Shown one piece after another: positions 3,280-6,890 of a stretch of DNA of 61,882 bases. A program made the position numbers and the translations under genes. The stretch's first letter is position 1. Every line of letters starts with the position of its first letter. The DNA comes from Bacteroidia bacterium (GTDB taxonomy: Bacteria; Bacteroidota; Bacteroidia; UKL13-3). The stretch lies in assembly GCA_023151275.1 (NCBI GenBank), contig JAKLJI010000019.1, positions 1 to 61,882 of the forward strand. Reading direction: 5' to 3'. The notes below the pieces were generated by a model. It did not search any database and was not told the DNA's origin. It saw only the letters and a list, made by a program, of their open reading frames with translations.

Positions 3280-3954
3280 ATGTTGTATTTCATTGTTCCT
3301 CTCCTGCTAAGCTTTTTAGTTAGTTGGAGATTCAAGTCAAAAATTAAAGAATACTCTCAGGTAGGTTTAGCCAATCGCCTAACCGGTGCTGAGATTGCCG
3401 AAAAAATGCTTCGGGAGAATGGAATTTACGATGTGCGGGTTTTGAGCACAGATGGCCAATTAACCGACCATTACAACCCCACAGACAAAACCGTGAATTT
3501 GAGTCACGACGTATATTATGGACGCAGTGTTATGGCGGCAGCTGTTGCAGCGCACGAATGCGGACACGCTGTTCAGCATGCCAATAGCTATGCTTGGTTG
3601 AATTTCAGATCGAGCATGGTGCCTGTGGTGAGTTTTGCATCCAATTGGGTTCAGTGGATTTTGTTGGGTGGCGTTTTGTTGGTAAACAAATTCCCTATGT
3701 TGTTACTGGGCGGAATTGTATTGTTTGCCCTAACTACTTTATTCTCCTTGGTAACACTTCCGGTTGAATTTGATGCCAGCAAAAGGGCACTGAATTGGTT
3801 GAACGAACGCGGAATGGTTAGAGACAATGAAGGTCCAATGACTAGGGATGCTTTGAAATGGGCAGCTATGACCTATGTAGTTGCTGCCATTGCTTCGGTA
3901 GCTACCCTGTTGTATTACTTACAGATTTTTATGGGTAGCCGACGGGAGGAATAA
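3280..3954 (+). CDS. Membrane zinc metallopeptidase, YugP family
   Basis: 224 residues. The zinc motif HECGHAVQHA is at ~residues 90-99, preceded by the NPTDKTVNLSHDVYYGRSV segment typical of the YugP-like putative neutral zinc peptidases. Hydrophobic helices lie at the N-terminus, at ~114-160, and near the C-terminus, with FDASKRAL between, as in the family. It is an inner-membrane protein whose substrate is not established for the family. It lies downstream of a small membrane protein gene and is closed by a strong terminator. Confidence 0.9.
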   Translation: MLYFIVPLLLSFLVSWRFKSKIKEYSQVGLANRLTGAEIAEKMLRENGIYDVRVLSTDGQLTDHYNPTDKTVNLSHDVYYGRSVMAAAVAAHECGHAVQHANSYAWLNFRSSMVPVVSFASNWVQWILLGGVLLVNKFPMLLLGGIVLFALTTLFSLVTLPVEFDASKRALNWLNERGMVRDNEGPMTRDALKWAAMTYVVAAIASVATLLYYLQIFMGSRREE

Positions 3955-3971
3955 GAAAATTAATTTGTCTG

Positions 3972-4008
3972 AAAAGCTGCTTCAACTTGGATTGAAGCAG
4001 CTTTTTTT
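3972..4008 (+). terminator. Rho-independent terminator after the zinc peptidase gene
   Basis: Perfect 14-bp stem (3972-3985 with 3992-4005), loop CTTGGA, then a run of T. Confidence 0.9.
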
Positions 4009-4064
4009 ATGCTTGAAGGTTAATGAGATTCTCGACAGAAGTCTTGCTCGAAAAACTAAATTTT

Positions 4065-4110
4065 CACCGCAAATCATGCGGCGAAAAAGTGCTTTTTTCG
4101 CCGCATGATT
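4065..4110. repeat. Three-half-site repeat, copy downstream of fic
   Basis: Contains CACCGCA-AATCA-TGCGGCG followed by a 17-bp perfect inverted repeat (4072-4088 with 4094-4110, loop GTGCT) built on GCGGCGAAAAA. The same arrangement lies just upstream of the fic start codon in the same orientation. In the fic direction no T-run follows, so it is not a classical terminator and may be a second operator. Confidence 0.7.
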
Positions 4111-4157
4111 AAAATTTATGAATAAAATGAAATAGTTCTTTCCCTTCAATGGACGGG

Positions 4158-5282
4158 TTAAGCAATCTTGGGCAACCTAATATGCTTTGGACTAACAATT
4201 ACGTAATTGGTTTTCTTACCACTATCCTCCGCTTTCAGCATTCCTTTATGAACAAGATCCTGCAAATCACGCAAGGCAGTATCGGTGGAGCATTTTGCCA
4301 TTTTAGCATACGTTGAGGTGCGCAAAAAACCAACTTCCTTTTCGTAATTGTCATAGATATAGTTGATAACTAAGCGCTGCCTTGAATTGATGCTTTTGGA
4401 TTTGTGACTATCCCAAAAATATGCCTTATCCAAGATAACTTCCAGATTCTTCTCGCTTGAACGTAAAGCTCTTTCGAAGCAACCTAAAAACCATTCCAAA
4501 TATTCGGTAATATCTGTTGTTCCCTTCTGGGTTTTCTCAAGGATATCATAATAGCTTTTTTGCTCCTTAACCAGCTGATTTGAAAGACTATAAAATCGAA
4601 TTCTGCTTGAATCGCTTTGGGTTAAAACCTTATCCAATATTGCACGAGCTATCCTTCCATTGCCATCATCAAAGGGGTGAATGGTTAAAAACCACAAATG
4701 CGCAACAAGTGATTTTAGAACCAAATCAAGCTGGGTATCTCTGTTTAGCCAATCCAAAAAAACATGCATTTCTTCAGGAACTCGATTGGCTGAAGGCGCT
4801 TCAAAATGAATCTTTTCCTTACCAAAGTTTCCTGAAATTACCTTCATGCCACCAGAACGGTATTTGGCCACATCAATTTGAAGATGACCACTATATCCGG
4901 ATTGAAAAAGCGAATTGTGCCAACCGAATAAACGTTCGGAGCTAAGTGGTTTATCAAAATTTTGGGTGGCATCCAACACCACATCAACTACTCCCTCAAT
5001 GTTTCGGGGTATTTTGATTAGGGTTGTATTTTCAATTCCCAACTTTCGAGCAATTGAGGACCGAACAAGTTCAGGGTTTAAAAATTCACCTTCAATTCGG
5101 GAGGTATCTACCACATCAAGAATGAGGGATTCAAGTGTAGCTCTTTCGTTAAACTCAAAACCCAAACTCTCCATTCGGCCAAGTAAACGCCCTTGCAAAT
5201 ACCTAACAGAAGTAAGAACAGGAGTAAGTTTATCCCTGTCCCAATAAAAATTTGGCCAATCTTCTCTTTCGTGAATGTACAT
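4158..5282 (-). CDS. Fic family AMP-transferase with DUF4172 and winged-helix domains
   Basis: 374 residues. Order: N-terminal DUF4172-type region (~1-80; REDWPNFYWD, RYLQGRLLG), an inhibitory helix with TSRIEGE that fits [S/T]xxxE[G/N], the Fic core with HPFDDGNGRIAR (~residues 203-214), and a C-terminal winged helix (~300-374). Fic proteins transfer AMP from ATP to protein hydroxyl groups; the inhibitory glutamate before the core marks class II, which is self-inhibited. The C-terminal helix-turn-helix and the palindromic repeat 5 nt before the start codon suggest that it controls its own promoter; that is inference. No antitoxin gene is adjacent. The target protein is unknown. Confidence 0.92.
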   Translation of the reverse strand: MYIHEREDWPNFYWDRDKLTPVLTSVRYLQGRLLGRMESLGFEFNERATLESLILDVVDTSRIEGEFLNPELVRSSIARKLGIENTTLIKIPRNIEGVVDVVLDATQNFDKPLSSERLFGWHNSLFQSGYSGHLQIDVAKYRSGGMKVISGNFGKEKIHFEAPSANRVPEEMHVFLDWLNRDTQLDLVLKSLVAHLWFLTIHPFDDGNGRIARAILDKVLTQSDSSRIRFYSLSNQLVKEQKSYYDILEKTQKGTTDITEYLEWFLGCFERALRSSEKNLEVILDKAYFWDSHKSKSINSRQRLVINYIYDNYEKEVGFLRTSTYAKMAKCSTDTALRDLQDLVHKGMLKAEDSGKKTNYVIVSPKHIRLPKIA

Positions 5283-5287
5283 TTTAC

Positions 5288-5328
5288 CACCGCAAATTAT
5301 GCGGTGAAAATACTATTTTTTCACCGCA
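5288..5328. promoter_or_regulatory. Operator-like repeat just upstream of fic
   Basis: Palindrome CACCGCA-AATTA-TGCGGTG (5288-5306), overlapping a second inverted repeat GCGGTGAAAA / TTTTCACCGC (5301-5310 with 5318-5327). It therefore holds three half-sites of GCGGTGAAAA form. It ends 5 nt before the fic ATG, and it is repeated with C/T substitutions at 4065-4110 beyond the other end of fic. Confidence 0.65.
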
Positions 5329-5332
5329 CACC

Positions 5333-5837
5333 AAAAAAAACTCAGAAAATCACCTTTTTACGAAAACAACAAACCCGAATTAATTCCGATGCATTTCCTT
5401 TTTTGTTGGAAAACGTCCAACTCCTAGTCAATTGGCGAGACTTAGAGAAAACCTTGAAGGTGGTAAAACGAAGCAAGACCTTTTGATGGATGGAGATTTC
5501 GGGGTTGTAATGGGCTTGTCTTGCAAACTCGGATTCACATAGCATCGAAATTTTGGATGGAGTTGGATTCTGCTTTTGATTTTTAGACAATTGTTATCCA
5601 GCAGGTAATTTGCCTTAGGGGCAGAAGCGGTGCCCCGCAAAGCAGCAACTTTAGCGTTTTGCAGGAGGGCGGGCTGCCGGCAGAAAGCCCCGACAGCCTG
5701 CTAAAAACGCAAAGCTTGCGGCTGCGGAGTACAAGCGGATGACCCGGGCCAGGCGGCAACATGAAGCTATAAACTCTTCCAATTTGGATAGCCGCCACTG
5801 GCAAGGCCCAAAAACAAACTGGAAACGGATTTAAATC
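5333..5837. other. Gene-free region with a GC-rich hairpin element (5618-5796)
   Basis: 505 nt between fic and mltG without a credible gene. 5333-5617 is ordinary AT-rich sequence in which I see nothing. 5618-5796 is much richer in G and C than its surroundings and strongly structured. GGGGCA/TGCCCC form a hairpin at 5618-5636. At 5642-5725 a long imperfect stem pairs GCAGC with GCTGC, CTTT-GCGTTTT-GCAGG with CCTGC-AAAACGC-AAAG, and GGGCT with AGCCC around the palindrome CTGCCGGCAG. GGCGGC (5752-5757) can pair with GCCGCC (5791-5796). Short open frames crossing it have no recognisable protein character. It could be a dispersed repeat or a structured RNA at the 3' end of the mltG transcript. 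Confidence 0.55.
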
Positions 5838-6890
5838 CTAATTGATACCTCTTTGGTTGAGCGCCATTTGGTACAAACGGGCGTTGTTTTGATGTTGACG
5901 AAGGTTGGCAGCGAAATTGTGGTATCCGCTAAAATCTTCTTTGGCGCAGAAATAGAAATACTCGTGTTTTTGCGCATTTAAGACGGCATCAATGGCTTGC
6001 ACACTTGGCATGCAAATGGGACCAGGCGGAAGTCCGGCGTATTTGTAGGTATTGTAAGGCGACTCAATGGCGGTATGGAACGATGTTACTCTTCGTATTT
6101 CGTTGTTATTCCAGGCAAATATGATGGTTGGGTCGGCTTGAAGTGGCATTCCGGCACGCAACCTGTTTAGATAAACGCCAGCAACTACTGGCATCTCATC
6201 TGTTTTATTGGTTTCTTTTTGTACAATAGAAGCCAGGGTGGACACTTGTTGTTGAGTAAGGTTTAAGTCTAGGGCTTTTACAATTCGCTCCTTATTCCAA
6301 AACTGTTTGTACTCGCGTTGCATGCGGGTAATGAGCTGTTTGGAATTGGTATTCCAGTAAAAATTGTAGGTATTGGGTACAAAGAGGCTAATTACTGTGT
6401 TGGAATCAAATCCCAATTCGTTTAACACCACCGGATCGCGAAGTTGTTGCAACAAATCAAGGCTATCTAACTCGAGTTGATGACTAAAAAAACCTGCGAT
6501 TGAATAGATGTCCTGTGCTTGTTTCAATACCACATTAAGGGTTTGTTGCTTTCCTGAAATCAGCAAACGAATGAGTTGCATATTGCTCATGCCTTCCTCA
6601 AACTGGTAACGACCGGGCTTTAGCTTTTTATCGAGGCTAAACAACTTGCCCAAGCGGCGAAAACCATCGTGATTTTGGAGAATGCCACGGGTTTCGAGTC
6701 TGAAAATAAAATTCTCAAAACTTTGTCCGGTGCGTATGGTAATGGCTTGAGGGAATTTTACATTGGGTGAAAAAACATCGGCATAAATTCGGTAAACGGA
6801 TGTGATAAGCAGCAATGCTATCACCACCGACAGGTATTTGAATCCCTTACGGGTTTTTAGGTAACGCTGAAAAAAACTATATGCCTGCAC
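5838..6890 (-). CDS. mltG: Endolytic murein transglycosylase MltG
   Basis: 350 residues, usual for the family. One membrane helix near residues 19-38 is followed by a LysM-like part and the YceG domain with ASIVQKETNKTDEMPVV, GVYLNRLRAGMPLQADPT, and SPYNTYKYAGLPPGPI. The QKET segment carries the family's catalytic glutamate. The enzyme cleaves nascent peptidoglycan strands near the inner membrane and helps set glycan length. The start appears to be GTG, since no ATG precedes the membrane helix. It lies 42 nt downstream of the cytochrome gene, at the end of a five-gene run on this strand. Confidence 0.93.
   Translation of the reverse strand: MQAYSFFQRYLKTRKGFKYLSVVIALLLITSVYRIYADVFSPNVKFPQAITIRTGQSFENFIFRLETRGILQNHDGFRRLGKLFSLDKKLKPGRYQFEEGMSNMQLIRLLISGKQQTLNVVLKQAQDIYSIAGFFSHQLELDSLDLLQQLRDPVVLNELGFDSNTVISLFVPNTYNFYWNTNSKQLITRMQREYKQFWNKERIVKALDLNLTQQQVSTLASIVQKETNKTDEMPVVAGVYLNRLRAGMPLQADPTIIFAWNNNEIRRVTSFHTAIESPYNTYKYAGLPPGPICMPSVQAIDAVLNAQKHEYFYFCAKEDFSGYHNFAANLRQHQNNARLYQMALNQRGIN

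What the first reader, a model, noticed from the sequence alone, without database searches (positions are those of the whole stretch)
4065..5328. fic is flanked on both sides by the same three-half-site repeat
The fic gene is preceded (5288-5328) and followed (4065-4110) by copies of CACCGCA-N5-TGCGG(T/C)GAAAA...TTTTTTC(A/G)CCGC in the same orientation. The upstream copy lies 5 nt before the ATG, the protein ends in a winged helix, and the enzyme is a class II (self-inhibited) Fic. This suggests autoregulation through two operator sites, possibly with looping, or insertion of the gene as a unit between repeats.
Basis: partly seen in the sequence, partly recalled or inferred. Interest (0 to 1): 0.55.

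Follow-up and report, generated by a model that had tools for sequence, protein, structure and literature searches.

The report
Self-repressing Fic enzyme's three-part operator
A gene for a protein-modifying (Fic) enzyme carries, right at its start, a three-part DNA docking site that relatives in several bacterial phyla also carry and that changes in step with the enzyme's DNA-reading helix, so the enzyme very probably switches off its own gene; the second copy behind the gene looks like a leftover.

Summary
Two copies of a three-half-site element (GCGG-23-CCGC-11-GCGG, core start to core start) flank fic and are the only two found in the 3.9-Mb genome. The upstream copy is the operator/promoter of a family of DUF4172-Fic-winged-helix genes: in 29 genomes (own included) 30 of 33 near-exact copies sit directly before fic, the other three near a fic gene. 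Over Fic loci from several phyla the 23 spacing recurs (61 of 84 and 19 of 40 loci by exact core; at most 0.1 expected). Half-site letters co-vary with the recognition helix, partly confirmed on loci fetched after the rules were noted. TATTTT (-7 box) stands inside the element in 29 of 30 fic-linked copies. Best reading: autorepression by Fic's own winged helix, as published for CccR but with another operator layout. The downstream copy has lost TATTTT; extra copies occur in 3 of 29 genomes and two of them look like decayed duplicates, so it is probably a leftover, perhaps doubling as terminator. fic is inserted relative to two sister genomes; that the repeats are the insert's ends is not supported, though its exact ends were not determined.

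The parts
4158..5282 (-). fic gene: DUF4172 - Fic - C-terminal winged helix, 374 aa, class II
   Evidence: ORF; Pfam DUF4172 7.2e-30 and Fic 2.3e-15; PADLOC SoFic 6.1e-40; model mean pLDDT 88.5, nearest solved fold 8cil with TM 0.90
5290..5327 (-). operator triad of fic: half-sites 1 (5327-5318), 2 (5310-5301) and 3 (GCGG 5293-5290)
   Evidence: the same triad at 0-1 mismatch precedes fic in the 28 other genomes given
5307..5312 (-). -7 promoter box TATTTT overlapping half-site 2 (inferred)
   Evidence: TATTTT at this place in 28 of 29 anchored close relatives and 29 of 30 fic-linked copies; -7 consensus TAnnTTTG from PMC9723704 (passages)
5332..5334 (-). -33-like TTG, 19-nt spacer (inferred)
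   Evidence: sequence; TTG with spacer 19 in 15 and spacer 20 in 5 of 29 anchored relatives; the -33 motif itself is recalled
5300..5300 (-). predicted transcription start; 18-nt leader holding only half-site 3 (inferred)
   Evidence: from the -12 to -5 position of the -7 box in a flavobacterium
4067..4104 (-). downstream (orphan) operator triad; CTTTTT where the upstream copy has TATTTT
   Evidence: no fic start behind it
4061..4087 (-). terminator-like hairpin made of half-sites 2-3 of the orphan, followed by TTTAGTTTTT
   Evidence: 4 terminator-like sites in the 2-kb region on both strands, 2.5 expected
4197..4385 (-). coding part of the winged helix (residues 300-362); recognition helix 333-345 with D334 and R338, inferred to read the half-site
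3280..3954 (+). left neighbour (zinc-protease-like, name by eye); next to the right neighbour in two same-genus genomes that lack fic here
5838..6890 (-). right neighbour (MltG-like, name by eye)

Best explanation
The upstream element is the operator of fic, and the Fic protein itself is the repressor. Its C-terminal winged helix reads half-sites of the type TGCGGTGAAAA. Three half-sites in fixed geometry (> 23 < 11 >) cover the -7 box and, by inference, the transcription start, and the third ends just before the start codon, so Fic bound there blocks its own transcription. The enzyme is then held low twice: by its inhibitory helix (class II) and by negative feedback on its gene. The operator travels with the gene through horizontal transfer. 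The downstream copy is most likely a leftover operator from a lost duplicate of the operator and gene start; it keeps the half-sites but not the promoter box, and its half-sites 2-3 may serve as fic terminator. Shown here: presence, position, uniqueness in the genome, spacing, overlap with a promoter consensus, co-variation with the recognition helix. Inferred: binding, repression, transcription start, origin of the downstream copy.
For: Only two copies in the own genome. In 29 genomes 33 matches with 0-1 mismatch, 30 of them directly before fic; at up to 3 mismatches 44 matches against 10 for the reversed pattern. Spacing GCGG-23-CCGC in 61 of 84 loci (0.1 expected) and 19 of 40 further loci (0.0 expected); CCGC-11-GCGG in 43/84 and 9/40, -10- in 10/84 and 11/40. 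Exact 7-bp inverted pairs upstream of fic in 68 of 84 loci against 571 of 1680 shuffles. Co-variation over 124 loci, counting loci with two or more copies in 120 nt: TGCGG in 94 of 102 with D and R in the helix, 0 of 8 with K+I/V, 0 of 3 with R->N, 1 of 9 with D->A; GC[AG]ACG in 7 of 8 K+I/V against 0 of 102; TGA-type in 8 of 9 D->A against 0 of 102; TTCGG in 2 of 3 R->N against 1 of 102 (the other two of the 124 fit no class). The rules were noted before the new loci were seen. D334 and R338 lie in the first turns of the recognition helix 333-345. Precedent: CccR, a class II Fic with C-terminal HTH, represses its own promoter through palindromes; dimerisation and the HTH are needed (PMC9755527: abstract, passages, section 9).
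Against: No binding or expression data for this protein. Co-varying groups are partly clades: seven of eight K+I/V members are 56-80% identical to each other (L212, 42-47% to them, is the outsider); L015 and L181 are 66% identical (L083, 46-47%, is the outsider). Exceptions: L058 has K with an ordinary half-site; a rule for His failed; eight of 102 D,R loci have fewer than two TGCGG, among them L187 with another motif; L211 and L091 (no start codon found) show none of the class motifs twice; L095 (D->A) has two TGCGG; TTCGG also occurs twice in the D->A loci L216 and L217. The TGA pattern was widened after the new loci were seen. A letter-free caller put 51 of 84 loci above the 99th percentile of shuffles. 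CccR's footprint (two 10-bp boxes 26 bp apart) is not this geometry.
Confidence: 0.86

Rival explanations
1. The element acts as RNA: the middle half-site pairs alternatively with the first or third half-site and works as an attenuator or leader switch.
For: Both copies fold well as RNA (z -4.9 and -4.3); three inverted half-sites allow two exclusive hairpins; with G-U counted, most half-site positions pair between sites 1 and 2, position 6 included (25 of 29 close and 43 of 49 distant dyads).
Against: The -7 box lies inside the element, so the predicted transcript holds only half-site 3 (inference). Even with G-U, position 7 pairs in only 15 of 29 close dyads, and positions 5 and 8 in only 27 and 29 of 49 distant ones. 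17 of 61 loci have a further 23-spaced dyad upstream of the promoter-proximal one. The letters follow the protein's recognition helix.
Confidence: 0.06
2. Another regulator of the host, not Fic, binds the half-sites.
For: No binding test was made; sites for a host regulator would also be conserved.
Against: At 0-1 mismatch the triad occurs in 29 genomes only at or near fic; the geometry accompanies fic in several phyla; letters change with Fic's own helix.
Confidence: 0.05
3. The two repeats are the ends of a mobile unit that carried fic.
For: fic is absent between the same two genes in two same-genus genomes, where the aligned neighbours are about 72-79 bp apart and no half-site core is found. 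On the left, the stretch between the neighbour gene and the downstream copy (3955-4066) is not much longer than the whole empty site, so an insert edge near the downstream copy is possible. In two relatives fic sits between long direct repeats.
Against: On the right about 500 bp, with a dispersed repeat, lie between the upstream copy and the neighbour gene. The upstream repeat is an operator that precedes fic in all 29 genomes, 26 of which have no extra copy. The flanking repeats of L040 and L093 (146 and about 200 nt) lie outside the operator.
Confidence: 0.06
4. The downstream copy is a functional second operator (loop, decoy or roadblock) kept by selection.
For: All half-sites are intact while TATTTT is lost, also in the L053 orphan; half-sites 1-2 lie in a perfect 17-bp inverted repeat.
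Against: Extra copies in 3 of 29 genomes, at different distances. One (L121) still has TATTTT and about 45 bp of a fic start, one (L053) a remnant of it, so decay of duplicates explains those two. Behind the window's copy no fic remnant is detectable (489 of 1000 shuffles reach its score), which neither supports nor excludes decay. Perfect hairpins can also arise by templated correction (recalled).
Confidence: 0.2
5. The downstream copy now serves as the transcription terminator of fic.
For: Half-sites 2-3 form an 11-bp stem followed by TTTAGTTTTT about 70 nt after the stop codon; it is the only terminator-like site found on that strand between fic and the next gene.
Against: Four such sites in the 2-kb region against 2.5 in shuffles; a stronger hairpin of half-sites 1-2 competes; an extra copy is missing in 26 of 29 genomes.
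Confidence: 0.3

Closest known systems
CccR of Yersinia pseudotuberculosis (PMC9755527; abstract, passages and section 9 seen)
   Same: Class II Fic enzyme with C-terminal HTH that represses its own promoter through inverted repeats near the -35 and -10 boxes; homodimer.
   Different: Published operator is two 10-bp boxes 26 bp apart; here three half-sites in 23/11 spacing with other letters. CccR is a secreted effector; secretion of the window's Fic was not tested.
CbFic2, PDB 8cil (PMC10628234; abstract and passages seen)
   Same: Nearest solved structure: TM 0.90, 41% identity (sequence match 3.2e-94); DUF4172-Fic-HTH; DNA binding through the HTH reported.
   Different: The paper used random DNA and names no specific site in the passages seen; it proposes DNA-induced switching of activity, which was not tested here.
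SoFic of Shewanella oneidensis (3eqx, 3zcn) and the PADLOC SoFic model
   Same: PADLOC model match 6.1e-40; a Shewanella relative (L095) has TGAGGC half-sites that, read by eye, lie > 22 < 11 > 23 < (sequence).
   Different: Looser structure match (TM 0.57-0.59). The CbFic2 paper says DNA binding by SoFic had not been shown. In the Sofic defence paper PMC12249575 (passages seen) the words winged, DNA-binding, transcription and upstream do not occur in the main text. Whether the window's Fic is a defence gene was not tested.

Membership tests
[quoted passage not shown]
   H202PFDDGNGRIAR213 and T60SRIEG65; definition as in PMC9755527 section 9
DUF4172-Fic-winged-helix subfamily | DUF4172, Fic domain and C-terminal wHTH in one chain | tested here: met
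   Pfam hits above cut-off for the first two; wHTH by model (helices 300-311, 322-329, 333-345, strands 349-354 and 357-362) and by the full-length match to 8cil; Pfam finds no wHTH above its cut-off
CccR-type autorepressor | Inverted-repeat operator overlapping the gene's own core promoter | tested here: met
   by sequence only
CccR-type autorepressor | HTH reads that operator | tested here: inconclusive
   co-variation supports it; no binding measured
CccR-type autorepressor | Operator layout of two 10-bp boxes 26 bp apart | tested here: not met
   23/11 geometry with three half-sites
CccR-type autorepressor | Gene is de-repressed when the protein is absent | not testable with these tools
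   needs a reporter
SoFic anti-phage defence | Protection against phage | not testable with these tools
   only a profile match
REP/MITE-like dispersed repeat | Many copies scattered in the genome | tested here: not met
   two copies only
Repeat-bounded mobile unit | Repeats coincide with the ends of the inserted DNA | tested here: inconclusive
   empty site seen in two same-genus genomes, but the ends of the insert could not be fixed; about 500 bp lie beyond the upstream copy

The most novel reading that the evidence does not exclude
The operator array is also a switch of the enzyme: on the array the Fic is assembled into closely spaced dimers or oligomers that are held inactive or deAMPylating, and when the array is vacated or saturated the free enzyme AMPylates its target. 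Array length (one triad to two or more) would then set both gene dose and the fraction of active enzyme, making the operator a DNA-encoded antitoxin.
Probability: 0.15. Interest if true: 0.82.

Novelty: new variant of a known kind. Interest (0 to 1): 0.56.

Why it matters
It turns a single published case of a self-repressing Fic into a family-wide, testable rule: a fixed operator geometry overlapping the promoter, with a readable link between two or three helix residues and the half-site letters. It predicts binding sites for family members whose specific site is unreported in the papers seen here, and gives a way to ask whether DNA occupancy controls AMPylation.

Tried and rejected
Dispersed-repeat idea (my first lead, from a recalled repeat): rejected, only two copies. 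Rfam: no match reaching a gathering score in 3900-5900. RNA switch: disfavoured; my first pairing count left out G-U pairs, and with them the argument from pairing is weaker, so I raised that rival from 0.05 to 0.06. Fic remnant behind the window's downstream copy: none detectable. A rule for His in the recognition helix: failed on new loci. Letter-free half-site caller: 51 of 84 above the shuffle threshold, weak where the last dyad lies close to the ATG, so counts were made with exact cores. Matching CccR's boxes to this geometry: inconclusive. On re-reading, 'the repeats are not the ends of the insert' was too firm; that test is now inconclusive and the rival raised from 0.04 to 0.06 (main confidence 0.87 to 0.86).

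One search was given 29 genomes (own and 28 others); G124, the genome of L086, was left out. The TGA-type pattern was widened (TGAGCC) after seeing L216 and L217; the prediction made beforehand was C3 to A.

Full report
What was checked. Read in the direction of fic they are GCGGTGAAAAAATAGTATTTTCACCGCATAATTTGCGG (5327-5290) and GCGGCGAAAAAAGCACTTTTTCGCCGCATGATTTGCGG (4104-4067). Two gapped patterns and one 38-base pattern with up to 3 mismatches find only these two places in the 3.9-Mb genome. The genome has four weaker Fic matches at 24-32% identity; one search finds no copy of the element at them.

The gene. fic (4158-5282, minus) encodes DUF4172 and Fic domains, a class II inhibitory motif and a winged helix: helices 300-311, 322-329 and 333-345 and strands 349-354 and 357-362 in a model of mean pLDDT 88.5. 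The nearest solved structure is 8cil, Coxiella burnetii Fic protein 2 (TM 0.90, 41% identity). PADLOC's SoFic model matches at 6.1e-40.

The upstream element belongs to the gene. The 29 loci at 65-80% identity listed (L039-L066 and L093; titles such as Belliella, Runella, Flavobacteriales, Saprospiraceae, Bacteroidales) show the element right before the ATG when read by eye; in L055, L057, L059 and L061 one half-site is imperfect. In 29 other genomes a first pattern found 26 sites in 22 genomes: 22 before a full fic, L121 before a fic start only, and L102, L109 and L119 at unrelated places. With the 38-base pattern 29 genomes (own included) gave 44 matches at up to 3 mismatches, the reversed control 10. 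Of the 33 at 0-1 mismatch, 30 directly precede fic and 3 are extra copies near a fic gene. Of the 11 at 2-3 mismatches, three (in G101, G106 and G120) are the same fic operator read on the other strand and one (G109:C41) precedes another fic; the remaining seven were not followed up.

Geometry. Over 84 Fic loci (from and the window) GCGG and CCGC are exactly 23 apart in 61, against 0.1 expected; in 40 further loci in 19, against 0.0. CCGC to the next GCGG is 11 in 43 and 9 loci, 10 in 10 and 11. Loci with the exact 23 spacing include records titled Taklimakanibacter (L070), Acidobacteria (L072), Chthoniobacteraceae (L073), Nitrospira (L074), Omnitrophota (L077 and others) and Auribacter (L088); many of these are MAGs. 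Seventeen of 61 loci have two or more such dyads.

Promoter. Anchored on half-site 2, TATTTT stands at a fixed place in 28 of 29 close relatives, and a TTG lies 19 or 20 nt before it in 20 of 29. The flavobacterial -7 consensus is TAnnTTTG at -12 to -5 (PMC9723704, passages). The predicted start is therefore 5300 and the leader 18 nt; this is inference.

Who reads it. In the recognition helix CSTDTALRD (331-339), changes coincide with half-site changes (rules noted; new loci; counts). Arg338 to Asn goes with loss of the G in TGCGG (L015, L083; new: L181). Asp334 to Ala goes with C3 to A (L085, L087, L089, L090, L092, L095; new: L216, L217; L091, without a start codon found, shows nothing). Lys with Ile/Val (CSKD[TS]A[IV]RD) goes with GC[AG]ACG (L017, L031, L071; new: L182, L192, L199, L209, and L212 with one copy). 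A His rule failed, L058 is an exception, L187 has another motif. Members of a group are partly related, so independent events are fewer than loci.

RNA or DNA. The dyads could fold as RNA. Pairing between half-sites 1 and 2 is good at the core; counting G-U, position 7 pairs in 15 of 29 close dyads and positions 5 and 8 in 27 and 29 of 49 distant ones. This alone does not exclude an RNA hairpin; the promoter box inside the element, the extra dyads upstream and the link to the recognition helix speak for DNA.

The downstream copy. Extra copies near fic exist in 3 of 29 genomes. I read them as duplicates in decay. In the window half-sites 2-3 also make a terminator-like hairpin with TTTAGTTTTT behind it.

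Insertion. In two same-genus genomes the aligned left and right neighbours are about 72-79 bp apart, without fic and without a TGCGG or CCGCA. fic is 76-80% identical to relatives with quite different titles, while within the genus the neighbours' products are 78-81% (protease) and 48-49% (MltG) identical; this points to horizontal transfer. The stretch between the neighbours (3955-5837) includes a dispersed repeat of about 140 bp near 5610-5750. The exact ends of the insert were not determined.

Known work. CccR is a proven self-repressing Fic (PMC9755527), so the principle is known; layout, letters and the family-wide rule differ. Searches for DUF4172 (3 papers) and for Fic with regulation terms (20 of 187 and 15 of 29 papers listed), seen as listings, showed no other description of this operator; the library holds only open-licence papers.

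Noticed in passing
window 5610-5750: GC-rich block of about 140 bp repeated elsewhere in the own genome: ten further copies at 77-91% identity over 129-149 nt, plus weaker or shorter ones.
   Followed up: partly
L040:2734-2879 and 4127-4272; L093:2533-2753 and 4266-4484: fic lies between long direct repeats (146 nt at 87%; about 200 nt in pieces at 82-95%), so in these genomes it may ride repeat-bounded units; matches to the L040 repeat occur in 6 of 7 genomes searched, weakly in the own genome.
   Followed up: partly
L109 and L119 (Runella): GCGGTGAAAATTTTATTTTCACCGC palindromes without a third half-site and without fic; terminator-like by eye.
   Followed up: no
L121 (G109:C43): Fic operator plus about 45 bp of a fic start, followed by other sequence, about 2.5 kb from an intact fic on the same contig.
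   Followed up: partly
L187: Fic relative with recognition helix HRDTARRD and a quite different palindrome TACTGCAAATA...TATTTGCAGTA upstream.
   Followed up: no
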